Notes under the pieces: model-generated | Told to the model about the DNA's origin: nothing | The model's database searches: none | The model's input: the letters and a program-made list of their open reading frames with translations, nothing else | Assembly (NCBI RefSeq): GCF_018314255.1 | Contig: NZ_CP073066.1 | Location: forward strand, 682,001 to 746,000 | DNA from: Lentilactobacillus buchneri | GTDB taxonomy: Bacteria; Bacillota; Bacilli; Lactobacillales; Lactobacillaceae | DNA length: 64,000 nucleotides | Direction of reading: 5' to 3' | In this document: in pieces, positions 2,921 to 56,078 of the stretch | How the letters are laid out: each line of letters starts with the position of its first letter | How positions within the stretch are numbered: position 1 is the stretch's first letter | Program-made: the position numbers and the translations under genes

Positions 2921-3039
2921 ACAATGAGCTATGCCTCGACCTCCGTTGAGATCCACTGTTATCTAGTTTAAACGTGGAACGATCGGCCGCTCCCGGCCAT
3001 TTAAGCAAAAAATCGAGTTATTCCAAGAACAGGAATAAC

Positions 3040-4508
3040 GGCTCTACAATATCTGTTGTTGGTAATAGATTTTTATCTATTACTGATGACAGATTTTTTG
3101 TTTTTCATTAGAATAAAAAAAGCGGACATTTCCTGTCCGTTCATCAAAACCAACAACCACGAAGATTTTAGAGAAAGAAGGAAATGCCCTATGTCAAATG
3201 ATACTACGAAAATGTTGTTAGGAATAGATGATGAACACTTAAAAATTGAGAATGGCAAAATAGGTGATGATGGGGTAATCAGATTAAATGGATCACTGAA
3301 CTATTCTCCCAAGGCCTGCCGCAATTGTGGGGTTATTAATGATCACCAGATCATTGGCTATGGTTGGCGGAAGACCACCATTAGATTCGCTAAAACATTG
3401 GGCAGCACGGTTATCCTATGCCTCAATCGGCGAAACTTTCACTGTAAGGCTTGTCATACCAACTTCCTGGCGCAGACGAGTGCAGTGCCGAAGCACTGCA
3501 CGATTTCAAATACAACCCGGAAACAATGTTTAGAGAAGTTAACGGAACCAGTGAGCCTCAAACACATTGCCAATGAATTGTCCACTTCGGATTCATTCGT
3601 TGGTCGGCAGCTCTTGCGCGCTGAACACGACTTTCAAACCAACTGGCACTACTTACCCAAAGTTCTCCTCATGGACGAAGTTAAAAGTACTAAGAGCGCC
3701 ACCGACGCGATGAGCTTTGAATTTATGGACGCGGAAACCCACGAATTGATTGACCTGTTGCCCTTTAGAACCATCTATCAGCTTCAAAAGTACTTCCAAC
3801 ATTATGACCAAGCCGCGCGAGAAAATGTGAAAATTATCGTTACCGATATGAACTATACCTATCCCAAATTGGTTGGGCAGATCTTCCCGAACGCCATCGT
3901 TGTCATCGATCCCTTCCACCTGGTTAACGCTTTAAACCGGGCTTTTAATAAGACGCGAGTGCGTCTCATGAAAACCCCGGCCACTTCCTCACGCCAGTAT
4001 CACGCCTTGAAACGCTATTGGAAACTATTATTAACGCCGGCCAATCACCTTAACTACGAGGCTTTCCGTAAGTGGACAAACTTCCCTTATCCGGCAACTG
4101 CCACGGATGTGGTTGATGCTTTACTGGACATTGATCCCGAGCTCAAGCAAACTTACGACGTGATGAATCGGTTACGTGAAACCATCAAAAACCGCGACTG
4201 GCCCAACTATAATCAAGCCTTTCACCACCTGCAGGGGTGCTCGGAAGAGATGTTGGCAGCCCTCCAAACCTTGGCGGCTCATCATGATGAAATTGGCAAC
4301 ACTTTCACCCACCACTACACCAACGGGCCATTAGAAGGTTCAAACAACAAGATTAAAGTCATTAAGCGCACTGGATTTGGTTACCGAAACTTCTTCAGAT
4401 TCCGGCTAAGAGTGCTGTTCGCTTTTCGAGTTCATACAAAAAGAGCCCTAATCACCAAGTGATTAGAACTCCAATATTTTGTTCACCAACAACAGTTGAC
4501 GAAGAACC
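3040..4508 (+). mobile_element. ISL3-family insertion sequence, copy 2 (1469 bp)
   Basis: The ends are GGCTCTACAATATCTG on the left and, read inward, GGTTCTTCGTCAACTG on the right. The 8-bp direct repeat GGAATAAC is at 3032-3039 and 4509-4516. It sits at the loop-proximal end of the long inverted repeat described as E1. Apart from a 37-bp end duplication in the third copy, this copy and the one at 48821-50326 look almost identical, pointing to recent transposition. Confidence 0.95.
3191..4462 (+). CDS. ISL3-family transposase (copy 2)
   Basis: A 423-residue transposase with the same zinc-binding, helix-turn-helix and DDE regions as copy 1. The frame is open further upstream, but the ATG at 3191 is preceded by GAAGGAAA and gives the same N-terminus (MSNDTTKMLLGIDDEH) as copy 1, so it is taken as the start. 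The protein appears to differ from the third copy at a single residue (KTPATSS here, KTLATSS there). It is intact. A short hairpin (GCGGACATTTCCTGTCCG) lies in the IS between the left end and the start codon; its T-rich side would stop transcripts antisense to the transposase. Confidence 0.95.
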   Translation: MSNDTTKMLLGIDDEHLKIENGKIGDDGVIRLNGSLNYSPKACRNCGVINDHQIIGYGWRKTTIRFAKTLGSTVILCLNRRNFHCKACHTNFLAQTSAVPKHCTISNTTRKQCLEKLTEPVSLKHIANELSTSDSFVGRQLLRAEHDFQTNWHYLPKVLLMDEVKSTKSATDAMSFEFMDAETHELIDLLPFRTIYQLQKYFQHYDQAARENVKIIVTDMNYTYPKLVGQIFPNAIVVIDPFHLVNALNRAFNKTRVRLMKTPATSSRQYHALKRYWKLLLTPANHLNYEAFRKWTNFPYPATATDVVDALLDIDPELKQTYDVMNRLRETIKNRDWPNYNQAFHHLQGCSEEMLAALQTLAAHHDEIGNTFTHHYTNGPLEGSNNKIKVIKRTGFGYRNFFRFRLRVLFAFRVHTKRALITK

Positions 4509-4567
4509 GGAATAACTCGATTTTTTGCTTAAATTCTGGGATCAAAACGCCTTGCGTTCCACTCTAT

Positions 4568-4924
4568 TTAATTAGAATGATTCAACTTTTCCTTAGCTGC
4601 TTTAGGCACCTGTGAATAAGGAATTCCCTCATAGTCAACGACATTCTTCGATCTTGAGTAACCAATCTTGATATAGTGACCTTTGACGAAATACTTACCG
4701 TCAACCGAGCCCACTTCAAGGGTCTTACCCTGACCTTTGTCATTGTAAGCCTTAATCAAATAGTAATGAACATCCGGGTTATTGCCGGGCGAATTCTCAG
4801 TTCGTTCCAATTTGCCAACTTGGCCATAGTAAAAGATTCTCGCATAATTGTGATGATACCAGATACCGCCAATTGCACCAAGCACAACAAGAACCGCCAA
4901 AATGATAATTGTTCTTTTCTTCAT
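4568..4924 (-). CDS. YxeA-like (DUF1093) membrane-anchored protein
   Basis: A 118-residue protein with an N-terminal hydrophobic segment at about 5-23 (TIIILAVLVVLGAIGGIWY) and an exported domain of about 90 residues. The pattern YYLIKAYNDKGQGKTLEVG followed by LKxGHYIKIGYSRSKNVVDYEGI-type strands is that of the DUF1093/YxeA family, small beta-rich exported proteins of Bacillales and lactobacilli with no settled function. GAGGGAGA precedes the start. The gene stands alone; the hairpin element E1 begins 5 bp beyond its stop. Confidence 0.7.
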   Translation of the reverse strand: MKKRTIIILAVLVVLGAIGGIWYHHNYARIFYYGQVGKLERTENSPGNNPDVHYYLIKAYNDKGQGKTLEVGSVDGKYFVKGHYIKIGYSRSKNVVDYEGIPYSQVPKAAKEKLNHSN

Positions 4925-5002
4925 GGTCGATCTCCCTCATATTCTGTCTATGGACAAACTATATCTAATCCCAACCAGCCTGTCAATCAATTTGCCAGGT
5001 CA

Positions 5003-6187
5003 CTATTTAGGCATCATTTCTTCCAAATAACGTTCCAGACGTGGATCGTGGGCGTGCAGATACATCCCTTTAATCCCCCGCCTCAGCAAAACGTTCAATG
5101 AATTTCTTAGCAGTTCAACTTTACTTTCTTCATAATCTTTTTTCGACATGTCGGAACGATGCTTGAAGATCTCCACGTCAGTGACTTTGCTGGGATCGAC
5201 GCCCAGACGGTTATCGGCAGTTAAATAAAACGGCGGCCCAATGATAATCCCAATGTAGTTCAGATCAAACCCCTGAACCGTGTAAATGCTGCCGACCTCG
5301 TCAATCGTTTGTGGCTGCTCAGCCCATGGGGTACTGGTGAAATTATATTGATCCCAAGGTAGATGAAAGTTGCCTTCGTTGACCAAATGTTTCCCACCAT
5401 CCAAGGTTGAGGGATAGCCACTGGTTGACGTCATTCGCGATAAGCCATACTGGTCGTTTTTCTTGATGATCGTTTGAAACATCTTTTCAGCATCGGCAAA
5501 AATACGAAAGTCATAGTCGCCAACGTCACTGGGAATCGCGGGTATAACATCCCCGTCAATAAAGTGATCCAGCCAATTCATCAGCTTCGGGCCGGCCTGC
5601 ATTCTAAACTGCTGCTTAAGATGCACTAAATCGTGAGGATATGGGGCGATCAATTTTTCCAATCTGGCTTTATTCCAAAAGCTCTTGGTTCGCAACACTT
5701 GATGCGGATCAAAAACAACAATCGTCACCCGGCTTAAATTGATGATGTCCTGCAGCTGATTGTCACCATAGTAGTTATTGTAGTGATCCGGCTTGCTCAG
5801 CAACAAATGGGCCTCATCGACAACCGTCAAATTGACCTGTTTGCCCTGCTTATGCATCTGATTGATAAAGCTCGTCGGCCGCTGATAGTACTTTTTCAGC
5901 ATGTGTGGGGTTTGCCCAGCCAACTCGCGATACACTTTTAGGAGTTCGGGATGATTGACCAGAAAATAGGCATCGTCAACGACTTGGGCCAACTCGGTAA
6001 ACAGTTGATTCAAGATCAAACTTTTGCCGGTCCCGGCATCCCCCATCAAAACAAACACCGCGTGCCCGTCTTCTTTTAAATGTTGGCGAGAAAAGGCGTC
6101 AATTTGCTTTAAAACAGCTTTCTGGTGGTCAGTCAGTTCAATATTTTTCGAAAATGCATTTAAGGTGTGCGATTCCAAAGATTCCAT
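5003..6187 (-). CDS. DUF2075 P-loop ATPase / helicase-like protein
   Basis: A 394-residue protein with Walker A GDAGTGKS at about 49-56 and Walker B VVDEAH at about 122-127, then RMQAGPKLMNWL and YTVQGFDLNYIGI, which resemble the helicase motifs of DUF2075 proteins. These are ATPases related to superfamily 1 helicases, often annotated as ATP/GTP-binding proteins; their cellular role is unclear. The frame extends upstream to 6277, but the ATG at 6187 has AGAAGGAGT 5 nt ahead and is the better start. A nuclease domain, which some relatives have, is not apparent here. It is a single-gene unit. Confidence 0.75.
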   Translation of the reverse strand: MESLESHTLNAFSKNIELTDHQKAVLKQIDAFSRQHLKEDGHAVFVLMGDAGTGKSLILNQLFTELAQVVDDAYFLVNHPELLKVYRELAGQTPHMLKKYYQRPTSFINQMHKQGKQVNLTVVDEAHLLLSKPDHYNNYYGDNQLQDIINLSRVTIVVFDPHQVLRTKSFWNKARLEKLIAPYPHDLVHLKQQFRMQAGPKLMNWLDHFIDGDVIPAIPSDVGDYDFRIFADAEKMFQTIIKKNDQYGLSRMTSTSGYPSTLDGGKHLVNEGNFHLPWDQYNFTSTPWAEQPQTIDEVGSIYTVQGFDLNYIGIIIGPPFYLTADNRLGVDPSKVTDVEIFKHRSDMSKKDYEESKVELLRNSLNVLLRRGIKGMYLHAHDPRLERYLEEMMPK

Positions 6188-6322
6188 TGGGTTACTCCTT
6201 CTCTCAAAGCTCATAATATCATGATAACTTTTCGCCGTTTTAATTTCCAGAAAGATCAAGCTTGCAATCGCTACCAATTATCATGAATAATAGAGACAAA
6301 CAAATCAGCGAGGAGAATCAGC

Positions 6323-7891
6323 ATGCCAACTTTCATTAATGGAAAAATATTCACTGGAATTGACCAGACGACTTTTGTTTCAGCGATGACAATTGAAGAT
6401 GGTCACGTCACTTGGATTGGTGAATCCGACGAGATCAATGATTCCGAGACAATTGACCTGCACGGCAAAACGGTCTTACCAGGATTGATCGACGTCCACA
6501 CCCATCCCAAATATATTGCCGACGCTCTGCATGGGGTTGCCTGCACACCGCCCAACGTCAATAGCATCAAAGACATGCAAGCTGCCCTACGTCAATCACC
6601 GGCCTTTGGAAAAGGCCCAGACACTTGGATCGAGGGCTGGGGCTTTGATGAAACCAAATTAGCCGAGCACCGGACGCCAACTGTCGATGATCTGGATGAA
6701 ATTTCCACCACACAGCCGATTTTTGTTTATCGGTCAGATTGCCACTCATCAATCGGTAATTCCAAAGCGCTGGAACTGGCGGGGATCACTGCAACGACCC
6801 CGGATCCGGTTGGCGGCTTCATTGGCCATTTTGATGACGGCCGGCCGAATGGTTACATGAAGGAAGTCGCCGCTACCCAGTTGTTAATCAAGGCGAAATC
6901 AGCCCAAAGTTATCAGGGCGATGTCGATAATATGGCGAACAGCTCCAGACATTATCTCCAAAACGGCATTGTCGCCATCGGTGAAATGATGGGGCGCATT
7001 CGCCCGTATGATTCGCTCAAACTTTACCAAGATGCTGTCAAGGCCGGTTTCAAACCAAAGTCATCCATTTACTACGTCTACGATGAAGTAGCCGGCAATA
7101 CCCACCTGCAACCGACGAATGATGATCAGTTGCGGGTTGCAGGCATCAAGGTCTTCATGGACGGCAGTATTTCCGGTGAAACCGCCTATAATCAACAACC
7201 TTATCCGAGCGGCCAAAATGGAGTCTGCCTGACGGACGCAACCAAACTCAAGCAAGCTGTCACCTATGCCAAACAGCAGCATCTCCAAGTTGCCATCCAT
7301 GCGATGGGCGACGCAGCGATCCAATTGATTTTGGATGTGACTGATAAACTGCAACCGTGGCTATCCGACCGGCCGTCAATCAGAATCGAGCATGCTTCCA
7401 TTCTGAGCAATCAAATGCTTAAACAAATCAACATGGCAACCATGAACTACGCCCTGGTGACCCAACCGATTTTCTTCTTTGCCGAGGATGAATCGTACCG
7501 TCACTATCTTTCCCCGCAGCAGTTCAATGAAGCCTACCGTGTGAAATCAATGATGAACACCAAAGCCGAGTTTGCCCTGAGCTCCGATGCCCCCTGCACA
7601 CCATGGGCTGAACCGGATAGCCCATTTGTGAACATTTACGCCGCAGTCACTCGAACCGCGGTCAATGGTGACGTTGTTAATCCTGAAGAAGCCATTACGG
7701 TTCCCGATGCAGTGCTTGCCTACACCAGTTGGCCGGCTAGGATTGGCGGTTTTAGTGATAACGGCCAGCTGACTCCTGGATATGCCGGGGATTTTGTTGT
7801 GCTTGACCGGGATATTTTCTCCGTACCGCATGAGGAGTTGAAAGATATTCGGGTTGCTGAGACTTGGATGGGTGGAGAACAGGTGTATTAG
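6323..7891 (+). CDS. Metal-dependent amidohydrolase, YtcJ type
   Basis: A 522-residue member of the amidohydrolase 3 group. The metal-binding GLIDVHTHP lies at about 53-61. Further ligands are suggested by GIKVFMDGSISG (lysine site), HAMGDAA, RIEHAS and SSDAPCTPW, the last holding the catalytic aspartate. Such enzymes are cytoplasmic TIM-barrel hydrolases of amide or ester bonds; the natural substrate of YtcJ-like proteins is unknown. No signal peptide is seen. GAGGAGAA precedes the ATG. The gene is monocistronic and ends at a strong terminator. It is complete, with all metal-site motifs present. Confidence 0.85.
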   Translation: MPTFINGKIFTGIDQTTFVSAMTIEDGHVTWIGESDEINDSETIDLHGKTVLPGLIDVHTHPKYIADALHGVACTPPNVNSIKDMQAALRQSPAFGKGPDTWIEGWGFDETKLAEHRTPTVDDLDEISTTQPIFVYRSDCHSSIGNSKALELAGITATTPDPVGGFIGHFDDGRPNGYMKEVAATQLLIKAKSAQSYQGDVDNMANSSRHYLQNGIVAIGEMMGRIRPYDSLKLYQDAVKAGFKPKSSIYYVYDEVAGNTHLQPTNDDQLRVAGIKVFMDGSISGETAYNQQPYPSGQNGVCLTDATKLKQAVTYAKQQHLQVAIHAMGDAAIQLILDVTDKLQPWLSDRPSIRIEHASILSNQMLKQINMATMNYALVTQPIFFFAEDESYRHYLSPQQFNEAYRVKSMMNTKAEFALSSDAPCTPWAEPDSPFVNIYAAVTRTAVNGDVVNPEEAITVPDAVLAYTSWPARIGGFSDNGQLTPGYAGDFVVLDRDIFSVPHEELKDIRVAETWMGGEQVY

Positions 7892-7896
7892 GACAC

Positions 7897-7927
7897 AAAA
7901 AAGGCACTCAGCTGAGTGTCTTTTTTT
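7897..7927 (+). terminator. Rho-independent terminator after the amidohydrolase gene
   Basis: AAAAAAGGCACTCAG pairs with CTGAGTGTCTTTTTT, giving a tight stem and a run of seven T. The A-run on the left means it could also work for the convergent transporter gene on the other strand. Confidence 0.85.
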
Positions 7928-7969
7928 ATGGGGTTTTAACAGGGTGCTCACAGATTTAGAAAATCTTGC

Positions 7970-9241: not shown

Positions 9242-9266
9242 AACATGTGCCTCCTATTAAAATTTA

Positions 9267-10232: not shown

Positions 10233-10305
10233 AGTAAACTCCTCTTTTCTTGATTGACTACGTAGTATTGATATCCCTTGTGCACATCTTTATGATATTT
10301 CTTCA

Positions 10306-10319
10306 GTAAAGCGGTTACA
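10306..10319 (-). promoter_or_regulatory. Candidate cre / LacI-family operator upstream of GH43 gene
   Basis: On the minus strand the sequence is TGTAACCGCTTTAC, which matches the CcpA cre consensus at about 12 of 14 positions and resembles other LacI-family operators. It lies about 75 bp upstream of the GH43 start. A second related site is at 10388-10399. Catabolite repression of this sugar operon would be expected. Confidence 0.5.
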
Positions 10320-10328
10320 AGCCATAAC

Positions 10329-10466: not shown

Positions 10467-10502
10467 GGTTGATTTAGTCAGATTGAGAGTGAGGTCACAA
10501 AG

Positions 10503-11393: not shown

Positions 11394-11421
11394 TAATATA
11401 TAGAATGGATGGCGAGATTTA

Positions 11422-12021: not shown

Positions 12022-12034
12022 ATAGGACTAACTA

Positions 12035-12079: not shown

Positions 12080-12105
12080 AATATCTACTTAAGGTAGAAA
12101 ATCTA

Positions 12106-27963: not shown

Positions 27964-28233
27964 CTTGCTTCCATTTTTGAGAGAAGGTTCAAATCCTTTA
28001 AAATCTGAGTAAAATGAGACCTACCATTCGGTTTATGAGAAATTTTAAAGCGCTTTCTTTGTATATTCTATATCTTCCTATTTATAATGAGGGCGTACAA
28101 AGTGTCTATAATCATTTGTGATTGTGAATTTTCTATATAATTTTAACTTATGTAAATAATTCGATTTTTCTTCACAGAATCTTTATAGATTTTTTGTAAA
28201 CTATAGTCAGTAAAGGAAAAGGAAGTGAACATT
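27964..28233 (+). promoter_or_regulatory. AT-rich upstream region of the YfcC gene with a cre-like site
   Basis: TTAAAGCGCTTTCT at 28045-28058 matches the CcpA cre consensus TGWAARCGYTWNCW at 13 of 14 positions. TATAGT at 28202-28207 could be the -10 box. The stretch between is AT-rich, including TGTAAATAATTCGA, which faintly recalls an ArgR box. No gene is seen here. Control by carbon source is likely, arginine control only possible. Confidence 0.5.
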
Positions 28234-29754
28234 ATGCAAAATCAACAATCAACTCCAAAGAAACGTCGATTTAAGATGCCTTCAGCCTACACCATCTTAT
28301 TTCTGATCATTATTTTTGTTGCTATTTTAACTTGGATCATCCCTGCCGGACAGTATAGCACCGACAAAGCCGGCAATATCATTGCCCACACTTACAAAGC
28401 GGTGGCTTCTAATCCGCAGGGAATCTGGGACGTCTTCTCCGCCCCGATTTATGGAATGGTCGGAAATGATACGACGGAAGGCGCGATCTCCGTTTCACTG
28501 TTCATCCTGGTGATTGGGGGCTTCTTGGGAGTCGTCAATCAAACTAAGGCGCTTGATGATGGAATTGCGACTGTTGTGTCAAAATACAAAGGCAAGGAAA
28601 AAGTTTTGATTCCCCTGCTGATGATTTTGTTTGCACTTGGTGGGTCAACTTACGGCATGGCCGAAGAAACCATTGCCTTTTACCCACTGCTAATTCCAGT
28701 CATGATTGGGGTCGGCTTCGATTCACTAGTGGCCGTCGCAATTGTCTTGGTTGGTTCGCAGGTCGGATGTTTGGCATCCACGGTTAACCCATTTGCGACC
28801 GGGGTTGCCTCACAAACGCTGCACATTTCACCCGGAGATGGGATTATTTCCCGGGCGGTCCTGTTTGTCATCGTGGTGGCAATCAGTATCCTGTTTGTTT
28901 ACCGATACGCTGCCAAAATTGAAAATGATCCTTCAAGGTCTTACGTCTTTGAACAGCGTGAAGAAGATTTGAAACGATTTGCGTTGAACCATGAAGACCA
29001 ACCCGGCACTAAGATGACCGGCCGACAAAAAGCCGTTCTCTGGATGTTTGGTTTGACATTCCTAGTCATGATCATGGGCTTGATTCCATGGGACCAAATC
29101 AACAAGAACTGGACCTTCTTTACCAGTTTCACCAAATGGGTTCAAGATGTGCCATTCTTAGGTAGTCTGGTTGGTTCCAACCTGGTACCATTTGGTTCCT
29201 GGTACTTCACTGAAATTACGACCCTCTTCTTCTTGATGGCAATCGTGGTGATGTTCGTCTTCCATATGAAGGAATCCACATTTATCGAATCATTCTTAGC
29301 CGGAATGAGTGACTTCATGGGTGTAGCAATTGTTGTTGCTGTTGCCCGTGGAATTCAAGTTGTCATGAATGATGGAAACATCACCGCAACCGTTCTCCAC
29401 TGGGGTGAAATGGGCTTGTCCAACCTCGGGTCGGTTGTCTTCATCATCTTGGCATACATCTTCTACATCCCAATGTCCTTCTTGATTCCATCAACGTCAG
29501 GCCTGGCAGCCGCTACGATGGGCATCATCGGCCCAATGGGTAAGTTCGCCGGTGTTGACCCAAGCTTGGTTGTAACAGCTTACCAGAGTGCATCCGGCTG
29601 GGTTAACCTAATCACACCAACATCGGGCGTTGTGATGGGAGCCTTGACAATTGCCCACGTCAACATCACGACTTGGTGGAAATTCATGTTCAAATTGATG
29701 GTTTACTTGTTCTTAGCGACTGCGATTTTCCTGGGGGTAATGGCACTGCTGTAG
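28234..29754 (+). CDS. YfcC-family transporter (basic amino acid / C4-dicarboxylate type)
   Basis: A 506-residue membrane protein with about 12 segments. The opening (PSAYTILFLIIIFVAILTWIIPAGQY) and IYGMVGNDTTEGAISVSLFILVIGGF are typical of the YfcC/DcuC-like group, often annotated as arginine-ornithine antiporter-like or short-chain fatty-acid transporters. The substrate cannot be read from the sequence. A dipeptidase gene follows 359 bp downstream, a frequent pairing that would suit uptake or export of amino acids or peptides. The start is the ATG at 28234 with AAGGAAG 9 nt ahead; a GTG at 28225 overlaps that site. Its stop codon overlaps the first long hairpin repeat. Confidence 0.75.
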   Translation: MQNQQSTPKKRRFKMPSAYTILFLIIIFVAILTWIIPAGQYSTDKAGNIIAHTYKAVASNPQGIWDVFSAPIYGMVGNDTTEGAISVSLFILVIGGFLGVVNQTKALDDGIATVVSKYKGKEKVLIPLLMILFALGGSTYGMAEETIAFYPLLIPVMIGVGFDSLVAVAIVLVGSQVGCLASTVNPFATGVASQTLHISPGDGIISRAVLFVIVVAISILFVYRYAAKIENDPSRSYVFEQREEDLKRFALNHEDQPGTKMTGRQKAVLWMFGLTFLVMIMGLIPWDQINKNWTFFTSFTKWVQDVPFLGSLVGSNLVPFGSWYFTEITTLFFLMAIVVMFVFHMKESTFIESFLAGMSDFMGVAIVVAVARGIQVVMNDGNITATVLHWGEMGLSNLGSVVFIILAYIFYIPMSFLIPSTSGLAAATMGIIGPMGKFAGVDPSLVVTAYQSASGWVNLITPTSGVVMGALTIAHVNITTWWKFMFKLMVYLFLATAIFLGVMALL

Positions 29755-29867
29755 AGCGCGACGAGGCCCGGGTGATGCGGTTTCTAAGGGTACTGTGATT
29801 AAAGCCCCTGGTTTTGGGGCTTTAATCACAGTACCCTTAGAAGTTAGCATCTGGGCCGTCGGAGCGC
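29754..29867. repeat. Long hairpin repeat, second family, unit A (114 bp)
   Basis: The unit begins GAGCGCGACGAGGCCCGGGT and ends GGGCCGTCGGAGCGC. Between lie perfect 27-bp arms (from TTCTAAGGG to GCCCC and back) around a TGGTTTT loop. Its first base is the last base of the YfcC stop codon. The ends match unit B, while the inner arms are unrelated to it. No T-run follows. Confidence 0.9.
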
Positions 29868-29877
29868 ATTTCAATCA

Positions 29878-37602: not shown

Positions 37603-38610
37603 ATGTTGAAAAAGAGAATTGAATGGATTGATATCGCCAAAGCATACGGTATTATTGCGGTGGTGTTTGGCCACGCGTTAGCCAGCGGCACAACCACCAA
37701 CATTATTTATTGGTGGCACATGCCCCTGTTCTTCATTGTCGGCGGATTCTTCTTGAAGCCGATTGACACAACTAAATTAACTCATTGGAAAAAGTTCTTT
37801 AATAAACGCATTTACCGGGATCTGCTGATCTACTTTATCGCGGGGATCGGCTTGATCCTGTTGTATAGCATCTTGTATGACAAAAATTGGGATTACTTGA
37901 TTAACCACCTCTCAAGACTGTTGGTCGGGGGCCGGACATTGAACCTGTACACGTCAACGTTCTGGTTTGTGAACGTCTACCTGCTGTCAATTACGGCGGT
38001 GACCCTGTTGATTTCGACCGTTAAATCCAGAATTGGTCAGCTCACAATTGTCGGGTTGGGATTATTTATCTCTACCTGCTATGACAAAATTGATTGGGTG
38101 AACTTGTACAATTATCAAACAATGCCCTGGAACTTGGATATCGTCTTGATTGCTGCATTCTTTACCTACGTCGGTTATCTGTTTTTCCACACAAATTGGC
38201 ACTGGATTGAAAAGCCATTGCCGATTGGATTACTGGTTGGTGCTTCCTTGGCAATCATTGGCTTGTATCTTAATCAGAAATTCAGCTTTGAATTTTCGAT
38301 GAAATCTCATCTGATTCAATCATCAGAGCCGAAAATCTTGATGCTGGCCACCATCCCACTGATTTTTTCATTTGGTGTGATGGGGCTATCGGCACTTACC
38401 AGCAAGCTGTCGATTGGCTTGTTGCTGTCAACCATTGGTAAGCACACCATGATTATTATGTATTTACACGGCACCCTGCTGGACATCGCAGAACAGGCTG
38501 GTATTGAAAACGTGGCCGTCAAAGTGATGATTGCGTTGGTTATCCCAATGCTGCTGGCACTGCTCAAGCAGCCGGTTGTTCGAAGGAATAGTATTTATTT
38601 ACAAGGATAA
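37603..38610 (+). CDS. Acyltransferase 3 family membrane protein
   Basis: A 335-residue protein with about ten hydrophobic segments. The opening ERIEWIDIAKAYGIIAVVFGHAL-type sequence and WWHMPLFFIVGGFFL are the two histidine-containing motifs of acyltransferase family 3 (OafA/fucose 4-O-acetylase-like). Such proteins move acetyl groups across the membrane onto wall or surface polysaccharides. The target is unknown and no polysaccharide cluster adjoins it. The ribosome site is weak: AAGGA lies 18 nt before the ATG. Hairpin element E3 starts 9 nt beyond the stop. Confidence 0.8.
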   Translation: MLKKRIEWIDIAKAYGIIAVVFGHALASGTTTNIIYWWHMPLFFIVGGFFLKPIDTTKLTHWKKFFNKRIYRDLLIYFIAGIGLILLYSILYDKNWDYLINHLSRLLVGGRTLNLYTSTFWFVNVYLLSITAVTLLISTVKSRIGQLTIVGLGLFISTCYDKIDWVNLYNYQTMPWNLDIVLIAAFFTYVGYLFFHTNWHWIEKPLPIGLLVGASLAIIGLYLNQKFSFEFSMKSHLIQSSEPKILMLATIPLIFSFGVMGLSALTSKLSIGLLLSTIGKHTMIIMYLHGTLLDIAEQAGIENVAVKVMIALVIPMLLALLKQPVVRRNSIYLQG

Positions 38611-38619
38611 TAAAAGAGA

Positions 38620-38727
38620 GTGTGAAAGCGGACGTTTAGCAAGGGAAATTTAAGCACCGCCAGGCGGAAACCGAGTCAGGTTTTCGAGTGGTGGTGCTTA
38701 AATTTCCCTTGCTGTCCGCTTTCACAC
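38620..38727. repeat. Long hairpin element E3 (108 bp)
   Basis: The outer 14-bp stem is GTGTGAAAGCGGAC (38620-38633) with GTCCGCTTTCACAC (38714-38727). A five-base bulge GTTTA (38634-38638) on the left faces a single T on the right. The inner stem is a perfect 20 bp (38639-38658 with 38693-38712), capped by CCA...TGG and AACC...GGTT pairings. It starts 9 nt after the acyltransferase stop. The bulge and the 14-nt outer arm match the elements E1 and E2. Confidence 0.9.
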
Positions 38728-38836
38728 GTTTGATCCAAATAACAGTAAAACACCAGGAAACCGAGTCAGGTTTTCGGCTGGTGGCGCTTAAACCTCGCTT
38801 GCTGTCCTCTTTCACACGTTTGATCCAAATAACAGT
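38665..38836 (+). repeat. Imperfect tandem duplication of the E3 right half
   Basis: The segment ACCGAGTCAGGTTTTCG to CGTTTGATCCAAATAACAGT occurs at about 38668-38746 and again about 90 bp later, to 38836. The second copy lacks the left arm. Its former stem bases have drifted (TTAAACCTCGCTTGC for TTAAATTTCCCTTGC) while the flank CACACGTTTGATCCAAATAA is unchanged. An open frame crosses both copies on the minus strand, but it only mirrors the repeat. Confidence 0.8.
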
Positions 38837-38843: not shown

Positions 38844-38890
38844 AAAAAAGGCTGAGATTACTAACAAATTGTTAGATCTCAGCCTCTTCT
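38844..38890 (-). terminator. Terminator downstream of the first GNAT gene
   Basis: GGCTGAGAT (38850-38858) pairs with ATCTCAGCC (38876-38884). Six T follow on the minus strand. Confidence 0.75.
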
Positions 38891-38929
38891 TTCTTGGTTC
38901 TGGAATCAACATCATGATCCCATATTCAA

Positions 38930-45142: not shown

Positions 45143-45151
45143 TGAATCAAT

Positions 45152-48762: not shown

Positions 48763-48776
48763 CATCTGATACATCA

Positions 48777-48819
48777 TAAAAAAGCCGACAACTGCATGAA
48801 CTGCAGCTGCCGGCTTTTT
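48777..48819. terminator. Terminator of the amino-acid permease gene, now abutting ISL3 copy 3
   Basis: AAAAAGCCG and CTGC pair with GCAG and CGGCTTTTT. The GCTTTTTG at its right end (48813-48820) is the 8-bp target duplication of the IS. The left arm, T-run included, remains whole, so termination should still work. The same stem would have served the convergent TauE/SafE gene. Confidence 0.85.
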
Positions 48820-48820
48820 G

Positions 48821-50326: not shown

Positions 50327-50395
50327 GCTTTTTGAGCATCAAGTGCCCCTGCCAAGGTAATTCCATCATACCCCAAATCATATTGATTGGCGAAG

Positions 50396-51157
50396 TTAAT
50401 TCAAAAACTGCCAAACCGTTTTGGCAAAAAAGATAACTAGCACAATAATAATAATCGGTCTGGCAATCGCACTGCCATACCTTTTGTAATATGAGGCGCC
50501 AAGGAAATTACCCAAAATACTAAAGGCCCCGGCAGTAAGCCCTAACCAAACCAACACCTTACCATTCATCAAAAAGACTGCTAAGGCACAAACATTTGTC
50601 GTCAGGTTGATCACCATGGTGTTACCAGCAGCCAGGTTGATTGGCAAGTGGGCAATGCCGACCAACGTCAAAATCAAAAAGGTTCCGGTCCCCGGACCGT
50701 AAAAGCCATCCCAGACACCAAGGGATATGGAAATCAGAATCGTTGCGACAAACTGTGACCAAGTCAATGGCTTGGACTCAGCCAGTCGCGAGTTCAGCGA
50801 GTGTCGATTCAATAATAGATACAACGCCGTTATCGGCAAAACAAACAATAAAATCAGCCGAAAATAATAATCAGAAATATGTAAAGCCATGTTGGCCCCA
50901 AACGAAGAACCCACCATCGCAGCTAACACAGAGAAGAAAGCCAGTTTGACGCGGATATACCCGCTCCGCATAAATTCCAAGGTAGCGACTGTCGTCCCCA
51001 TGGCTGATGATAACTTGTTGGTTCCAACCGCAAAATGAGCCGGAATCCCAACCATCAGATAAGCTGGTAATGAAATCAGACCGCCGCCACCACCAATCGC
51101 GTCCACAAAGCCAGCCAGAAAAACCAACGGACAAACAACTAAAAATTCGCTGAGCAT
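50396..51157 (-). CDS. TauE/SafE-family sulfite/anion exporter
   Basis: A 253-residue membrane protein with about seven to eight segments. The two half-repeats open with VFLAGFVDAIGGGGGLISLPAYLMVGIP and LGVWDGFYGPGTGTFLIL, the glycine-rich signatures of the TSUP (TauE/SafE) family. Members export sulfite, sulfoacetate or related anions; the substrate here is unknown. The gene once ended near the terminator shared with the amino-acid permease. The third ISL3 copy now lies 62 bp beyond its stop. The protein itself is complete. Confidence 0.88.
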   Translation of the reverse strand: MLSEFLVVCPLVFLAGFVDAIGGGGGLISLPAYLMVGIPAHFAVGTNKLSSAMGTTVATLEFMRSGYIRVKLAFFSVLAAMVGSSFGANMALHISDYYFRLILLFVLPITALYLLLNRHSLNSRLAESKPLTWSQFVATILISISLGVWDGFYGPGTGTFLILTLVGIAHLPINLAAGNTMVINLTTNVCALAVFLMNGKVLVWLGLTAGAFSILGNFLGASYYKRYGSAIARPIIIIVLVIFFAKTVWQFLN

Positions 51158-51326
51158 CCCCTCATCTCTTTTCTTATAATAATTCCCAGTTTACTGCTAA
51201 ATGACTGATTATAAAACGCCAAATCCAAGTAAGATGCTGAAAACTATAAGCAATAAATTAATTTAAATTTACATGCTTGGAATAATTCCGATTGTGGTAT
51301 AAATATATATGAGGGGGATACATATC

Positions 51327-51731
51327 ATGAAAACAATGAAATGGTTATTACTGGCATTTGCCAGTTGTGCATGCTTGTTACTATTGACTGAAAATCCACG
51401 GGTTGACGCGGCCGGGTCGATTCCACATTGGTACTTGGGCAACTGGCAGGCAGTTAATGGCAAAGATGTTTACGTTGGCATTCGTCGAAACGAGGTCATG
51501 CTCCAAGTCAAAAACGACGGTGTTTACTGGAAGCCCGTCACTTGGAAGAAAGACACCCAAGAATCCGGCGTCGTTTTTGGCACCGGAATGGGCGCTAAAA
51601 ATTCGAAGACCTATTTTGTATTAGTCAAACAAAAGATCCAAAAGAAATGGTATATGATTATGACCATGAAACAAAGTAAAATCAAACCTAGTGATCTGAG
51701 GAAGCACCCGATGATCATGAAACGTTATTAG
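51327..51731 (+). CDS. Small secreted protein, 134 aa
   Basis: An exported protein of unknown role. The signal peptide (MKTMKWLLLAFASCACLLLL) ends near residue 29 (VDAAG). The mature part of about 105 residues is basic and beta-rich (HWYLGNWQAVNGKDVYVGIRR, YFVLVKQKIQKKWYMIMTMK). A cysteine occurs in the hydrophobic core, but a proper lipobox is doubtful. The ATG at 51327 with GAGGGGGA 8 nt ahead is preferred to the in-frame start at 51309. A terminator follows. Confidence 0.65.
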   Translation: MKTMKWLLLAFASCACLLLLTENPRVDAAGSIPHWYLGNWQAVNGKDVYVGIRRNEVMLQVKNDGVYWKPVTWKKDTQESGVVFGTGMGAKNSKTYFVLVKQKIQKKWYMIMTMKQSKIKPSDLRKHPMIMKRY

Positions 51732-51736
51732 ACACA

Positions 51737-51812
51737 AAAGTCACCCATGTGAGTTCTTGCCATGAGCTGAAGTTCATCCTTCAACCTTGGAAACCCCACA
51801 GAGGTGACTTTT
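51737..51812. terminator. Wide-loop terminator between the small secreted gene and the ECF operon
   Basis: AAAAGTCACC pairs with GGTGACTTTTT across about 55 nt that may fold further. A- and T-runs on both sides suggest it serves both converging transcripts. Confidence 0.65.
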
Positions 51813-51813
51813 T

Positions 51814-52614
51814 CTATATATCTCGATTTTTCTGCCAATAATCATTAACGGATAAATATGGCCGTGAATCACCCAGCGACTCCGCTACGGCCATAATGCG
51901 CGGTGGTAGTAATCCCACTCGCTGGACAAGTTCGTGATCGCTGAACAATTCCCGTGGACTGCCGGCGAAGCCAAACTTCCCGTGCTCCATGACATACACC
52001 GACTCAAACTCGGCGGCGACCCAATCCATGTCATGGGTGATGGTCACAACTTGGTGGCCCGAATTAGCCAACTGATGGAAAATTGCGGTCAACTTGCGCC
52101 GGCTTTCCCAGTCAAGTGACATCATCGGCTCATCAAATAAATAGATCGCCGGATCCACTGCCAAAACTGTCGCAACGCTCAACAGCTTGCGTTCAGACAA
52201 CGACAGATCATATGAATTTTCAGCTGTTTGATCATCCAAGCCAACTCTTTTCAGAGCTTCTAAAGCCCGCCTCGTAATCGTGTCGTGGTCATCCATGACC
52301 TGCGCGACACTCCACTCCACCTCTCGTTGAACCGTCGGGTTGAAAAGCTGATCGTCAGGATTCTGAAAAGTAATCCCAACCTTTTGTAACTTTTCGACTG
52401 GTTTGAGATCGTTAAAGTCTTCTCCATCGATCTTAATCACACCGGTTTGTGGTGTCAGTAATCCCGTCAACAATTTGAAGAGCGTTGATTTGCCGGCACC
52501 ATTTTGGCCGACAATTGCCACCATCGGATCGGCGAAGTGCTCGTCTTCAACATCCAAGCTAAAGGACCGTTCCGGATAGGTGAACGTCAGGTGATTCAGT
52601 TCAATTGTGGACAT
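51814..52614 (-). CDS. ECF transporter ATPase, second subunit (EcfA-type)
   Basis: A 266-residue ABC ATPase. Walker A is GQNGAGKST (about 37-45), and Walker B is IYLFDEPMMSLD with the catalytic glutamate. The signature is degenerate: LSLSERKLLS instead of LSGGQ. It overlaps the preceding ATPase gene by 14 nt and is last in a four-gene S-T-A-A operon. With its partner, in which the signature is normal but Walker B is altered, it would form an asymmetric motor for vitamin or cofactor uptake. AGGAGG precedes the ATG. Confidence 0.88.
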   Translation of the reverse strand: MSTIELNHLTFTYPERSFSLDVEDEHFADPMVAIVGQNGAGKSTLFKLLTGLLTPQTGVIKIDGEDFNDLKPVEKLQKVGITFQNPDDQLFNPTVQREVEWSVAQVMDDHDTITRRALEALKRVGLDDQTAENSYDLSLSERKLLSVATVLAVDPAIYLFDEPMMSLDWESRRKLTAIFHQLANSGHQVVTITHDMDWVAAEFESVYVMEHGKFGFAGSPRELFSDHELVQRVGLLPPRIMAVAESLGDSRPYLSVNDYWQKNRDI

Positions 52615-53437
52615 ATCGGGCCTCCTTTAGCTCAGCGTCATTTACCGGATACCGGCCGTCAGCCAAGTGCCAATCCATTTTTTGAGCAAGTTGCTGAATT
52701 GTCGGAGCTGGAATCTGCCAGTCAGCTGCCAAATGATTAAACACCTCACCCGGCCTGCCCTGAGCTACCAGTTGACCCTCGTTCAACACCCACACAACGT
52801 CGGCAACTTCGCACAGGTCGTCAATTTCACTGGTGACAATGAAGACAGTCGTGTCTTTGACTTGGCCCAGCCATTGGAAAAATTGCCGGCGGCCAAAGGG
52901 ATCCATCTCACTGGTCGGATCATCCATAATCAAAACAGCCGGATTAGCGGCAATCGCCGTGGCAATCGCCAACCGCTGGATCTGACCGCCGGAAAGGCTC
53001 TCGGGAGATAAATTCAACTGTTCAATCAGCCCCATTTGCGTGGCAACTTCTTCAACCCGTTTTTGAATCAGTCCTTCAGCCATTCCCTGATTAATCAAGT
53101 CAAAGGCGATTTCATCGGCAACCGTGTCTGCCAACCCACTTAGTTGGCCAGCTGGATTTTGCAGCACAACTCCAGTCATGGCATTATATGCGGGCCAATT
53201 ATCAGACACTCGCTGGCCAAACATGTGCCAGTCGCCCTCAATATCGGCCGAAACAATCTTGGGAATGACCCCTGCCAGCACACGGCACAAAGTCGATTTG
53301 CCGGAGTGGCTGTTCCCAATAATCCCAACCACCTGGCCCGACCGAACCTGCGCGTTAATCTGACGCAGTTGTGGTTGCTCAGTACCCGGATAACGGGTGG
53401 TCAAATTTTCAATTACAATCCGTTTATCTTCGTCCAT
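52601..53437 (-). CDS. ECF transporter ATPase, first subunit (EcfA-type)
   Basis: A 278-residue ABC ATPase. Walker A is GNSHSGKSTL, the signature is LSGGQIQRLA, and Walker B reads VLIMDDPTSEMD, with aspartate where the catalytic glutamate is usual. It pairs with the following ATPase, whose signature is degenerate, so only one composite site may be fully active. The start is placed at the ATG at 53437, after GGTGGAAGAT; a GTG at 53446 is in frame. It overlaps the EcfT gene by about 25 nt and the next ATPase gene by 14 nt. Confidence 0.88.
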   Translation of the reverse strand: MDEDKRIVIENLTTRYPGTEQPQLRQINAQVRSGQVVGIIGNSHSGKSTLCRVLAGVIPKIVSADIEGDWHMFGQRVSDNWPAYNAMTGVVLQNPAGQLSGLADTVADEIAFDLINQGMAEGLIQKRVEEVATQMGLIEQLNLSPESLSGGQIQRLAIATAIAANPAVLIMDDPTSEMDPFGRRQFFQWLGQVKDTTVFIVTSEIDDLCEVADVVWVLNEGQLVAQGRPGEVFNHLAADWQIPAPTIQQLAQKMDWHLADGRYPVNDAELKEARYVHN

Positions 53438-54207
53438 ATCTTCCACCCAATCAATAAAATTGCCAATCCAGTCAAAACAATGTGGAACGTCCGTGACAGG
53501 CGATACACGCGCTGGGAGGTTCTGACAGTCCGGTTGGGATTATCAAAACCTCTGAGCTGGAGGGAAATCGACCGTGCCATCGATTGATCCAAGGTCTTAA
53601 TCACCAATGGAATCAGCACCGGCAGGACTGACTTTAATTTCTGAATCAACGTTTTTTGCGGATTGGTTCCGCGAACTTTTTGAGCCTGCTGGATTTTCCG
53701 CATATTGCGCATCATTTCCGGCAAAATATAACACACCGACATCAAAACGTAGACGGTTTTATAAGACAATCCAGACAGCTCCAAATAGGCAGCGTTTTCT
53801 GAAATACTCGTGGTCAACATGAAAAAGCCACTGGTCAAAATAATCACCAATACTCGACAACCGAGAGTGGTAGCGTAAATTAAGCCTTCTTTGTAAAAGG
53901 ACACCCCAAGCACAGAAAACAGCACCGTTTGATTCCGACTGTAAAACAACCCTTGGATGATCAGCATGGTACCAATCAAAAACAGGCTGAATCCCAGTGC
54001 CTTAAATGTGGTCGAACTCAATTTGGAAAATAACAATAGCAGTGTTGCGACAAGAATCAGTCCGGCCTGAAGCAATAAATTCGTACTGGCAAAACTCAAC
54101 AACGTCATGTCCAAGATGAACAAGAGCTTAGTAATCGGATCGATCACCTGGTACCACTTGAGCTTGACCCGTGGTGCTCCAGAAATCAATGTTTGATCAG
54201 TCATCAT
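53413..54207 (-). CDS. ECF transporter transmembrane subunit (EcfT-type)
   Basis: A 264-residue membrane protein with about five to six segments. KLLFILDMTLLSFASTNLLLQ is the typical EcfT start. Near residues 165-200 lie the coupling motifs with A-R-G character (KIQQAQKVRGTNP and MARSISLQLRGFDNPNR), which contact the ATPases. It joins the S component to the two ATPases. Its start overlaps the S-component gene by 4 nt, and its end overlaps the first ATPase gene, so the module is tightly coupled. Confidence 0.85.
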   Translation of the reverse strand: MMTDQTLISGAPRVKLKWYQVIDPITKLLFILDMTLLSFASTNLLLQAGLILVATLLLLFSKLSSTTFKALGFSLFLIGTMLIIQGLFYSRNQTVLFSVLGVSFYKEGLIYATTLGCRVLVIILTSGFFMLTTSISENAAYLELSGLSYKTVYVLMSVCYILPEMMRNMRKIQQAQKVRGTNPQKTLIQKLKSVLPVLIPLVIKTLDQSMARSISLQLRGFDNPNRTVRTSQRVYRLSRTFHIVLTGLAILLIGWKIWTKINGL

Positions 54208-54806
54208 TTATCATCCCTAAAAAAGTTCACCATCCGCTGCGGCAGCTGACGATAGATAAAGAATGCCAGGTAAGCCACGCAGACTTTGTCCAAAATATCC
54301 AAGACAAACTCATCGGTAAATGAGGCCAACCACACTGGTGCATGATTGGCGACCATTACCGCAAATAATGAGTCACCCCAAGCGATCCCGGTCTGACCAC
54401 CCCAAAAGATGACATTGAGTGGCGTTGAAATGACAGCTGAAACAATGGCAATAATAATAGCAGAAACAAATACCCGGCGTGCTGACGAGAACCACCCATT
54501 GGCGTGCAAAACTCCGACAGCAATCCCAATTCCGATGCTGGTAATCGCATACACGGTTGAAATTGGCGATAAGGTCAACCCATAGATCACGTTGTTGATG
54601 AAACCACTGATGGCACCGGCAACCGGCCCAGCCAACATGCTGGCAAGAAAAGTTCCCAAAGACCCCAGCCAGACAGGCAGCTTTAACCCCTCAGCCAATG
54701 CTTTGGCAACATAGTTAATCCCCACAGCAGCGGGAATCAAAGTCATGGTGGCAGCACTTAACTTAAATTTCCACATACTGGTACGATGAATCGGTTCTGT
54801 TTTCAT
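54204..54806 (-). CDS. ECF transporter substrate-binding S component, substrate unknown
   Basis: A 200-residue membrane protein with about six segments and the usual S-component pattern: LGSLGTFLASMLAGPVAGAISGFINNVIYGL. It is the first gene of the four-gene operon and, having its own T and A subunits, belongs to a dedicated (group I) ECF module. The substrate would be a vitamin, nucleoside, queuosine precursor or similar. I cannot tell which from sequence, and no riboswitch is visible. AGGAGAAG lies ahead of the ATG. A palindromic operator-like site lies 28 bp upstream. Confidence 0.82.
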   Translation of the reverse strand: MKTEPIHRTSMWKFKLSAATMTLIPAAVGINYVAKALAEGLKLPVWLGSLGTFLASMLAGPVAGAISGFINNVIYGLTLSPISTVYAITSIGIGIAVGVLHANGWFSSARRVFVSAIIIAIVSAVISTPLNVIFWGGQTGIAWGDSLFAVMVANHAPVWLASFTDEFVLDILDKVCVAYLAFFIYRQLPQRMVNFFRDDK

Positions 54807-54834
54807 AATCTTCTCCTTTGATTTTGATTATCAT

Positions 54835-54876
54835 AAAAGTATCTTCTACTTTTAAGTAAAAGTAAAAGATACTTTT
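54835..54876 (-). promoter_or_regulatory. Nested AAAAGTATCTT palindrome, operator of the ECF operon
   Basis: AAAAGTATCTT (54835-54845) is the inverse of AAGATACTTTT (54866-54876), and CTACTTTT/TAAAAGTA is nested inside. It lies just downstream of a promoter with TTGACA (54916-54921) and TACAAT (54894-54899), 16 bp apart on the minus strand. Such a position suits a repressor. The binding protein is unknown. Confidence 0.6.
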
Positions 54877-55053
54877 AACTCGACTTGGCACTTATTGTAC
54901 AAGTTTCAGCTAAAATGTCAAGAAAGCGCCTACTCATTTTCTGGCCAAGTTGTGCTCAAAACGGTTAAGAAACCCATAAACTATCGACTGATTGGCCCAT
55001 GGACATTTCAATATGCCCATAATAAAATTATTAACAATCATCGGGGGGAAATT

Positions 55054-55887
55054 ATGCTACATCGTCATCGCAAATTATTGATAACTATTAGTCTATTAGC
55101 CGTGATCGCAATTGTCGGGGTGATTTTTATCAAAGCCACCCTTAGTCCAGATAAGACGCCAACCGCCGTCACTGCTGTTAAGGAAGAAGTCTTTCCTAAT
55201 CAGATTTTTGAATCATACAAATATCCTTATGACCTGCGGATTATCCACTCAAACGCCAAACTATACTCGGCGCCAGCCGGCACTAAAGGATCAAAATATC
55301 TAGGAACCGTCACATCCAATCATCTGACTCGGAGAATTGTTGGTCAAAAACGGGCCGATCTGAATCACCGGCGCGCTGAAGGTTATATTTCTTTCGCCCA
55401 AAATGGACATACTTACTGGGTGAGCGCACAAAGCGTGGTGTTTCGGAACCTCAACAAACTGAAAGGCAACAACCCCAAAATTGAGGCCGCGATCGATGCC
55501 GGACTCAAACTTGTCGGCAAATCCAAATACGATTACGGTGGCGGTCGCAACTTGAGTGACATCAAAAATCACAAGTTCGATTGTTCATCATTTGTCCGCT
55601 ACTGCTTCAGTAAGGCTGGCGTCACCCTTGGCAATCTGGATAGCGTCACGACATACACCTTGGTCACAATGGGGCGTCCGGTTAAATTTCAAAATATGAA
55701 ACGCGGTGATCTGTTCTTCTTCACCAATTCACGTGGTCAGGTCAACTCGCACGTTGCCATTTACCTTGGGGACCATCTATTCTTACACGACCACGGGCAA
55801 TCAGATACTGGTGGCGTGGGGATTTCAACCTTGAATGCCCCGGGGTGGCGGAATGAAGCCAATGGGACCGTTCGGCGGATTGAATGA
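55054..55887 (+). CDS. NlpC/P60-family cell-wall peptidase
   Basis: A 277-residue protein with one N-terminal membrane or signal segment at about 8-26. Residues 60-140 are an SH3-like region (LRIIHSNAKLYSAPAGTKGSKYLG). The C-terminal NlpC/P60 domain has the catalytic Cys177 in FDCSSFVRYCF, His233 in NSHVAIYLGDH and a third polar residue near 247 (FLHDHGQ). It should cleave peptide cross-links or stem peptides of peptidoglycan during wall turnover. The ATG at 55054 follows GGGGGGAA; the open upstream frame crosses the ECF promoter and is unlikely to be used. Confidence 0.88.
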   Translation: MLHRHRKLLITISLLAVIAIVGVIFIKATLSPDKTPTAVTAVKEEVFPNQIFESYKYPYDLRIIHSNAKLYSAPAGTKGSKYLGTVTSNHLTRRIVGQKRADLNHRRAEGYISFAQNGHTYWVSAQSVVFRNLNKLKGNNPKIEAAIDAGLKLVGKSKYDYGGGRNLSDIKNHKFDCSSFVRYCFSKAGVTLGNLDSVTTYTLVTMGRPVKFQNMKRGDLFFFTNSRGQVNSHVAIYLGDHLFLHDHGQSDTGGVGISTLNAPGWRNEANGTVRRIE

Positions 55888-55893
55888 GAAATT

Positions 55894-55938
55894 AAGGGTG
55901 CTTGGCAAAATTTGATGTTTTGCTCAGGGGCCCTTTTT
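55894..55938 (+). terminator. Terminator after the NlpC/P60 gene
   Basis: AAGGGTGCTTGGCAAAA pairs with TTTTGCTCAGGGGCCCTT with small mismatches, followed by T. Confidence 0.7.
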
Positions 55939-55966
55939 GGTTTCTGGAGATTACCCTTGCCGAATC

Positions 55967-56078
55967 GTGGAAAAATCAGCAGCTTCCGGCCATATAAGGG
56001 GGAGTAGCCAAGCATCCAAGACCTGGATGCTTGGCTACTCCCCTTTATATTCTGGAAGCTAAACGCTGATTTTTCCAC
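55967..56078. repeat. Long hairpin element E2 (112 bp)
   Basis: The outer stem is a perfect 14 bp (GTGGAAAAATCAGC with GCTGATTTTTCCAC). A single A (55981) faces TAAAC (56060-56064). Then GCTTCC pairs with GGAAGC, an internal loop GGCC/TCT follows, and a long central arm includes a perfect 20 bp (GGGGAGTAGCCAAGCATCCA). It ends 1 nt from the permease stop codon at 56080. The loop boxes equal those of E1, and the A/TAAAC bulge equals that of E3 read on the other strand. No T-run follows either side. Confidence 0.92.

What the first reader, a model, noticed from the sequence alone, without database searches (positions are those of the whole stretch)
2974..56078. A family of long hairpins with fixed bulges and varying complementary arms, always just past a stop codon
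Elements E1 (2974-3039 joined to 4517-4562), E3 (38620-38727) and E2 (55967-56078) share an architecture. Each has 14-nt outer arms beginning GTGG or GTGTG, then a bulge GTTTA (GTTTT in E1) in the sense of the upstream gene, facing one base on the other side, then an inner stem opening with G. E1 and E2 also share an internal loop (CCGGCCAT against ATTCTGG). The central arms are unrelated in sequence yet complementary. Outer-stem bases change in pairs: AA/TT in E2 is CG/CG in E1, and A-T is G-C a few bases inward. Each lies 5, 9 and 1 nt from a stop codon, with the bulge always on the gene side. They lack a T-run, so they are not ordinary terminators. The plan of conserved ends with variable palindromic core recalls integron attC sites, but their core sequences are absent.
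Basis: partly seen in the sequence, partly recalled or inferred. Interest (0 to 1): 0.85.

Follow-up and report, generated by a model that had tools for sequence, protein, structure and literature searches.

The report
Widespread bulged hairpins at gene ends
More than a hundred lactic acid bacterial species carry a repeated DNA element, apparently not described before, that stands where a gene's transcription stop signal would be, folds into one long hairpin with a fixed kink, and changes the two sides of the hairpin together; what moves it is unknown.

Summary
E1, E2 and E3 belong to one family; the window holds two more (E4, E5). A covariance model finds 123 places in this genome and matches in 141 of 251 genomes of the family (115 of them strong). 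The sense strand folds as a 14-bp outer stem, a 4-nt bulge (GNTT in 43 of 48 copies), a 7-bp inner stem, an internal loop and a long stem of free sequence; 27 of 29 tested pairs covary. A stop codon lies within -3..+14 nt of the 5' end at 35 of 65 sites and 22 of 41 further sites. Relatives without the element have an ordinary terminator there in 17 of 20 cases. In the free stem G.T outnumbers A.C 146:10, also in copies turned against the gene (31:2). Orthologous copies show both arms changed together. The own genome has no Y1 transposase and no reverse transcriptase. Best reading: a non-autonomous mobile palindrome, handled as a folded single strand, that lands at terminators. No Rfam match; no description found in eight searches aimed at it.

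The parts
2958..3039 (-). E1, 3' half (3' box 2958-2973, outer and core stem) up to the insertion sequence
   Evidence: sequence; fold of joined element; continues at 4517-4565
3040..4508 (+). ISL3-family insertion sequence inside the loop of E1, target duplication GGAATAAC (3032-3039 / 4509-4516)
   Evidence: DDE_Tnp_ISL3 E=2.4e-50 for ORF 3056-4462; repeat read
4517..4565 (-). E1, 5' half; AGAGTG begins at 4565, two nt past the TAA stop (4568-4570) of the DUF1093 gene 4568-4924
29753..29875 (+). E4, new member; its AG completes the TAG stop of the DcuC-type gene 28225-29754
   Evidence: R2 E=9.9e-17; sequence; PF03606
29877..30011 (+). E5, new member in tandem with E4
   Evidence: R2 E=3e-25
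38617..38743 (+). E3, full element, 6 nt past the TAA of the acyltransferase gene 37603-38610
   Evidence: R2 E=7.2e-26; empty in the three best-matching relatives
38744..38833 (+). E3b, tandem second copy without its 5' arm
   Evidence: sequence, alignment
38844..38894 (+). terminator-like hairpin downstream of E3
   Evidence: sequence; hairpins directly after the stop in relatives
55951..56081 (-). E2, full element incl. 3' box; its AG forms the TAG stop of the amino-acid permease gene 56080-57417
   Evidence: R1 E=2.7e-31, R2 E=9e-37 (E2 is in both training sets); fold

Best explanation
It is a dispersed, non-autonomous mobile element of the lactobacilli, about 130 nt of hairpin plus 3' box, up to about 215 nt as a whole unit in the youngest copies seen. 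It inserts at intrinsic transcription terminators, replacing or filling the terminator hairpin; since terminators here follow stop codons closely, its 5' end abuts or completes the stop codon. It propagates as a folded single strand of one fixed polarity, recognised through the bulge (GNTT), the internal loop and the single-stranded 3' box, by an enzyme not yet identified. The free core stem needs only to pair, so its sequence changes fast; hairpin-templated copying of one arm onto the other (replication template switching), plus exchange with sister copies, changes both arms at once. SHOWN: family, fold, covariation, placement, presence and absence between species, strand asymmetry, concerted arm change. 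INFERRED: that it moves, that it moves as a single strand, that an enzyme reads the bulge, and the copying mechanism. UNKNOWN: the enzyme.
For: Dispersal: 123 places in the own genome. Presence and absence: E3 empty in its three best-matching relatives; 20 sites judged empty in relatives, 17 with a terminator at the spot by rule, against 0-8 of 100 shuffles per site and 21 of 48 window genes. Closely similar copies at different loci in G016 (L187, L188, L191, L195, L196, L200). Position: stop within -3..+14 nt at 35/65, 22/41 (not used before) and 15/33 sites; mirrored antisense stops 0/42. Single-strand polarity: core GT:AC 146:10; by distinct context 83:10; reversed copies 31:2; a second set of 100 copies 139:6, three of which overlap the first set. 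Bulge-closing pair covaries without exception in 48 copies. Concerted change: in 16 ortholog pairs (flanks 88-99%) core pairs show 35 double Watson-Crick changes, 15 one-sided, 17 broken of 301, against 12/11/11 of 375 in the base. Four G010 copies have the internal loop turned into the complement of the other arm, which their G016 orthologs lack. Template switching is a published route to such changes (PMC8794818, abstract and passages read).
Against: No enzyme found: Y1_Tnp is absent from 10 of 16 carrier genomes of the genus including the own one, reverse transcriptase from 11 of 16. No movement was observed, only presence and absence; empty sites were picked by eye and could be losses. No clean target duplication; in the clearest pairs the flanks are inverted (terminator arms). 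At the E3 site a more distant relative (G019) has an element and G008 and G016 remnants (by eye). Only 12 of 65 filled own copies keep a terminator by rule in the 3' flank (2 in the 5' flank). The pairing of the two unit ends shows in 2 of 6 folded G016 units (L188, L191) and is weak over 198 copies (6.01 v 5.77, sd 0.08). Outside the core the strand bias is not seen: middle part (inner stem and internal loop) GT:AC 15:59, outer stem 10:4, all parts 171:73; I ascribe the 59 to the conserved A/C mismatch of the internal loop, untested. Reversed copies may have inherited their G.T pairs. The healed loops in G010 could be one sister copy spread over four sites.
Confidence: 0.5

Rival explanations
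1. A functional RNA element: the sense transcript forms a 3'-UTR super-hairpin that ends, protects or processes mRNA (for example as an RNase III substrate), and is kept by selection in place.
For: G.U-tolerant pairing on one strand, covariation and conserved unpaired letters are RNA hallmarks; 57 of 106 own copies follow a stop codon closely in the gene's sense; orthologous copies keep pairing in place.
Against: In tandem contexts 25 of 60 copies point against the gene; the 18 reversed copies tallied are as well paired, with the same asymmetry. Orthologous genes often lack the element. No gene-class theme was tested.
Confidence: 0.25
2. Spread without an enzyme: replication forks stalled at terminator hairpins switch template to another hairpin through short shared arms (GGCTGGGAC/GTCCCAGCC), copying the element into a new terminator; the same process rewrites arms.
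For: Sites are terminators; one native arm can be kept while the other is replaced (L193 v G010); unit ends resemble common terminator arms; arms change in concert.
Against: The conserved bulge, internal loop and 3' box need a reader or selection; free template switching would heal the bulge. Switching between dispersed loci is not shown.
Confidence: 0.15
3. Unrelated long terminators or chance hairpins grouped by eye.
For: Long hairpins are common in the window (45 inverted-repeat pairs).
Against: Covariance-model E-values down to 1e-39, conserved bulge and 3' box in 48 diverse copies, 0 of 500 shuffles reaching the covariation.
Confidence: 0.01

Closest known systems
REP/BIME and REPINs (with RAYT, TnpA-REP)
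   Same: Dispersed extragenic palindromes, single-strand hairpin of one polarity with an irregularity in the stem, clusters of copies (PMC3116915 and PMC8266576, passages read)
   Different: REPs are 20-50 nt; this hairpin is about 110 nt with a free core; no conserved GTAG tetranucleotide; no Y1_Tnp in the own genome; sits in place of terminators
Integron attC sites
   Same: Imperfect palindrome used as one folded strand, sequence-variable with conserved organisation, at the 3' end of cassette genes (PMC8876359, passages read)
   Different: No GTTRRRY core (GTTT here), nothing like cassette exchange seen, a 4-nt bulge instead of single extrahelical bases (the latter recalled)
Bacterial MITEs
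   Same: Short, dispersed, non-coding, inverted repeats (recalled)
   Different: Repeat sequence is not conserved between copies, only its pairing; no target duplication established
Group IIC introns
   Same: Insert after inverted repeats such as attC (PMC8876359 passage); terminators as targets recalled
   Different: No reverse transcriptase in the own genome, no Rfam match in the window
Stem-loop repeat families of Petrillo et al. (PMC2267715)
   Same: Repeated structured families in bacterial genomes
   Different: The main text names Lactobacillus once, L. johnsonii in a table (passages only); whether a cluster there is related was not examined

Membership tests
REP/REPIN | RAYT (Y1_Tnp) encoded in the genome | tested here: not met
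   PF01797: 0 matches at E<=1e-5 in G000 and in 10 of 16 carrier genomes; 6 carriers do have Y1 proteins
REP/REPIN | conserved GTAG-like tetranucleotide 5' of the hairpin | tested here: not met
   only AGNGTG is conserved there, and its GTG lies in the stem
REP/REPIN | strand-specific single-strand hairpin | tested here: inconclusive
   GT:AC 146:10 in the core points to one strand, by sequence only; no biochemistry
Integron attC | GTTRRRY core at the 3' end | tested here: not met
   3' box reads CAC-NNTT-NNGC; the two T are invariant in 48 copies and the fourth base is not R in the consensus
Integron attC | integron integrase in the genome | not tested
MITE | conserved terminal inverted repeat sequence | tested here: not met
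   12 of 14 outer-stem pairs change on both sides among 48 copies
MITE | target-site duplication | tested here: inconclusive
   read by eye: no consistent direct repeat; flanks of the clearest cases are inverted
Intrinsic terminator | GC-rich stem followed by a T-run | tested here: not met
   hairpin is followed by the 3' box; a terminator by rule lies in the 3' flank of 12 of 65 own copies
Any Rfam 15 family | score above gathering threshold | tested here: not met
   0 in the whole window; six sub-threshold matches, five of them miRNA families, around E2
Group II intron | intron RNA and reverse transcriptase | tested here: not met
   no Rfam match in the window; no PF00078 match in G000

The most novel reading that the evidence does not exclude
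A new class of mobile element: a gene-less hairpin, recognised by the shape of one folded strand through a 4-nt bulge, that homes to transcription terminators across the lactobacilli and whose core sequence is free, continually rewritten on both arms at once by hairpin-templated copying. It would be neither REPIN, attC, MITE nor intron, and its recombinase would be unknown.
Probability: 0.35. Interest if true: 0.85.

Novelty: new variant of a known kind. Interest (0 to 1): 0.68.

Why it matters
It is numerous (123 places in a genome of 2.5 Mb), matches genomes in 24 of 40 genera examined in the family, has no Rfam match and was not found described in eight searches. It gives natural replicates for an open question: how long stems keep pairing while both arms change. 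Orthologous copies whose flanks are 88-99% alike hold cores that differ by several double changes, so selection and template switching could be told apart by counting over strains. It also points to transcription terminators as the landing site of a palindrome, which bears on annotation of gene ends and possibly on termination itself.

Tried and rejected
Y1 transposase as driver: rejected for the own genome. Reverse transcriptase as driver: rejected for the own genome. Rfam: nothing. Phage records: no match by blastn with one query. Plasmid records: six, one covering 88% of the query (L. kefiri, 74% identity, its first base being the last of a PTS gene), five covering 60%. Pseudoknot between bulge and 3' box: by eye, nothing convincing, dropped. 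Element ends first taken as a target duplication AAAAG: given up after the close-pair comparison. Hairpin energy in 3' v 5' flank: no clear difference (medians -14.4 and -13.4, 58 of 98 lower in 3'), so replaced by a terminator rule. Donors for changed cores (5' arm of 21 nt, 39 G010 and 61 G016 copies held, a part of all): near-identical donor (0.95 or more) for L251 and L267; for L238, L239, L240, L241, L242, L250, L252 and L275 the best sister copy scores 0.52-0.86, in several cases still better than the ortholog. Weak R2 matches may be generic hairpins: the wrong strand of real members reaches 63 bits, E about 1e-15, so 26 of the 141 positive genomes, with best E above 1e-16 by my count of the table, are doubtful; other perfect hairpins were not tried as decoys. 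Literature searches aimed at the element; one search was on template switching.
Full report
WHAT IS THERE. A blastn search of the own genome with E2 gave 16 other sites at E below 0.04 (my count of sites, both strands merged). A covariance model from 14 copies (R1) gave 84 matches in the own genome at E<=10, both strands counted, and matches in 19 of 60 genomes searched, the own one included: 16 of 24 in the genus, three of other genera, none outside the family. A second model from 48 diverse copies (R2) gave 141 matches, 123 distinct places, in the own genome at E<=0.001; only 150 of 651 candidates were scored. In the window it finds E2, E3 and two unreported tandem members, E4 and E5, right at the end of a DcuC-type gene. 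E1 cannot be scored whole because an ISL3-type insertion sequence sits in its loop.

ANATOMY. In sense: AGNGTG; outer stem of 14 bp; bulge GNTT (43 of 48 copies); inner stem of 7 bp opened by an A-T or T-A pair that covaries without exception (31 and 17 of 48); internal loop, often AGA against GGCC; a stem of about 26 bp with free sequence; a small loop; then CAC and a 3' box, consensus GTTTNNGCTAGRTAAC. In 48 copies 27 of 29 tested pairs changed on both sides, 325 cells against 94 in shuffles and at most 69 when slid. In a group of similar G016 copies the conserved unit goes on for about 80 nt; in two of six folded examples (L188, L191) its two ends pair to make a terminator-like base. Across 198 copies such pairing is above permutation but weak.

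PLACEMENT. ORFs were called crudely (at least 60 codons, no gene finder). A sense stop codon lies within -3..+14 nt of the 5' end at 35 of 65 own sites, against 0 of 42 antisense stops at the 3' end of the model (list). In 33 sites of relatives it is 15 (my count of the list). A further set of 41 own places, listed by R2 and not by R1, gives 22. At 26 of these 139 sites the offset is -2 or -1, that is, the first letters of the element complete the stop codon. Gene contexts over the 106 own sites: convergent 42, tandem with the gene 35, tandem against 25, divergent 4.

WHY THERE. Orthologous sites in G005, G010, G021 and G022 were compared. Twenty were judged empty by eye (3 for E3, 1 for E2, 9 in G005, 7 in G010); 17 have an intrinsic terminator by a fixed rule, against 0-8 of 100 single-base shuffles of each and 21 of 48 window ORFs, operon-internal ones included. 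The three misses are E3 and E2 in G021 and L035 in G005. Loci with an element, remnants or unclear alignment (for example L030, L033, L038, L042, L045, L047, L048) were not counted. So the element stands where the terminator stood; the stop-codon rule follows. In filled own sites a terminator by rule is found in the 3' flank in 12 of 65, in the 5' flank in 2, in shuffled 3' flanks in 3.

PRESENCE, ABSENCE AND REWRITING. E3 is absent from its three best-matching orthologs, but G019 has an element there and G008 and G016 remnants (by eye). At the E2 site G005 has outer arms without the core, G015 a different full copy, G022 a remnant, G021 none. Between G010 and G016, 18 copies paired by flank; 16 have flanks of 88-99% identity. 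Their core pairs: 234 unchanged, 35 changed on both sides to another Watson-Crick pair, 15 on one side, 17 broken; base pairs: 341, 12, 11, 11. Two new cores match a sister copy almost exactly; eight others have no near-identical donor among the copies held. In four G010 copies the internal loop has become the complement of the other arm, as expected from copying one arm from the other, unless one such copy spread to four sites.

STRAND. With scoring that treats both strands alike, the core stem holds 146 G.T and 10 A.C mismatches on the sense strand. The bias holds for copies with the gene (107:7), against it (31:2), for divergent ones (8:1), and in a second set of 100 copies (139:6), three of which are also in the first; by distinct sequence context 83:10 and 75:6. 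It does not hold in the middle part, inner stem plus internal loop (15:59), which I ascribe to the conserved mismatch of the loop without testing it; the outer stem has 10:4. Copies are related, so p-values are not quoted as independent. Read so, one strand of fixed polarity has been kept folded, whatever the direction of the host gene. This speaks against a symmetric cruciform as the thing selected and weakens a role inside the host mRNA; it leaves folded single-stranded DNA or an RNA of the source copies.

WHAT MOVES IT. Not a Y1/RAYT transposase in the own genome and not a reverse transcriptase. No other enzyme family was searched for. Spread by template switching between terminator hairpins needs no enzyme and remains open, but does not explain the conserved bulge and box.

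RANGE. R2 matches 141 of 251 family genomes in 24 of 40 genera, with at most 13 candidates scored per genome; 115 have best E below 1e-16 by my count, beyond what wrong-strand matches reach in the own genome. The full signature was read in copies of five other genera of the listing (g3, g4, g13, g37, g46); the other genera rest on the model score alone. An exact 3'-box pattern in named genomes hits only Lentilactobacillus and Secundilactobacillus (15 stretches). The names of genus and family for the window are inferred from equal contig lengths (G018 C113 and L. hilgardii NZ_GG669992.1, both 925,662), not stated by a tool.

WHAT IS KNOWN. Rfam 15 has no match at gathering threshold in the window. 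The searches listed under Tried and rejected found no description; subscription papers are not in the library. Closest in working are REPINs and attC; both fail defining tests here.

Noticed in passing
window 3040-4508; also L027 (3' flank): An ISL3-family insertion sequence sits in the loop of E1 with an 8-bp duplication, and the same IS end lies in the loop of the terminator-like hairpin after the copy in L027: the IS may prefer hairpin loops. Its end sequence recurs near 1466 and 50318.
   Followed up: partly
L089, L095, L098, L108, L355, L358 (partly L104): A subfamily carries an extra small hairpin of about 38 nt (CGCCAAGTAGGCTAG...CAGCCGGCCG) inserted in the 3' outer arm.
   Followed up: no
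G000 C1: Only 2 of 123 places fall in the first and 2 in the last tenth of the chromosome contig; if the contig starts at the origin, the element is depleted there. Origin position not checked.
   Followed up: no
L163 (G005): At the ortholog of L048 a decayed copy keeps a core-like hairpin followed by a run of T: a remnant that looks like a terminator.
   Followed up: no
L162 (Lactobacillus gasseri plasmid) and four similar records: 3'-half match (60% of the query, 78% identity) on plasmids of L. gasseri (four) and L. plantarum (one), hinting at transfer between genera.
   Followed up: partly
3' flanks of several copies: A recurring terminator GAGGCTGGGACAAAA...TTTTGTCCCAGCCTC is shared between loci and resembles the ends of the G016 unit; it may be a dispersed element in its own right.
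   Followed up: partly
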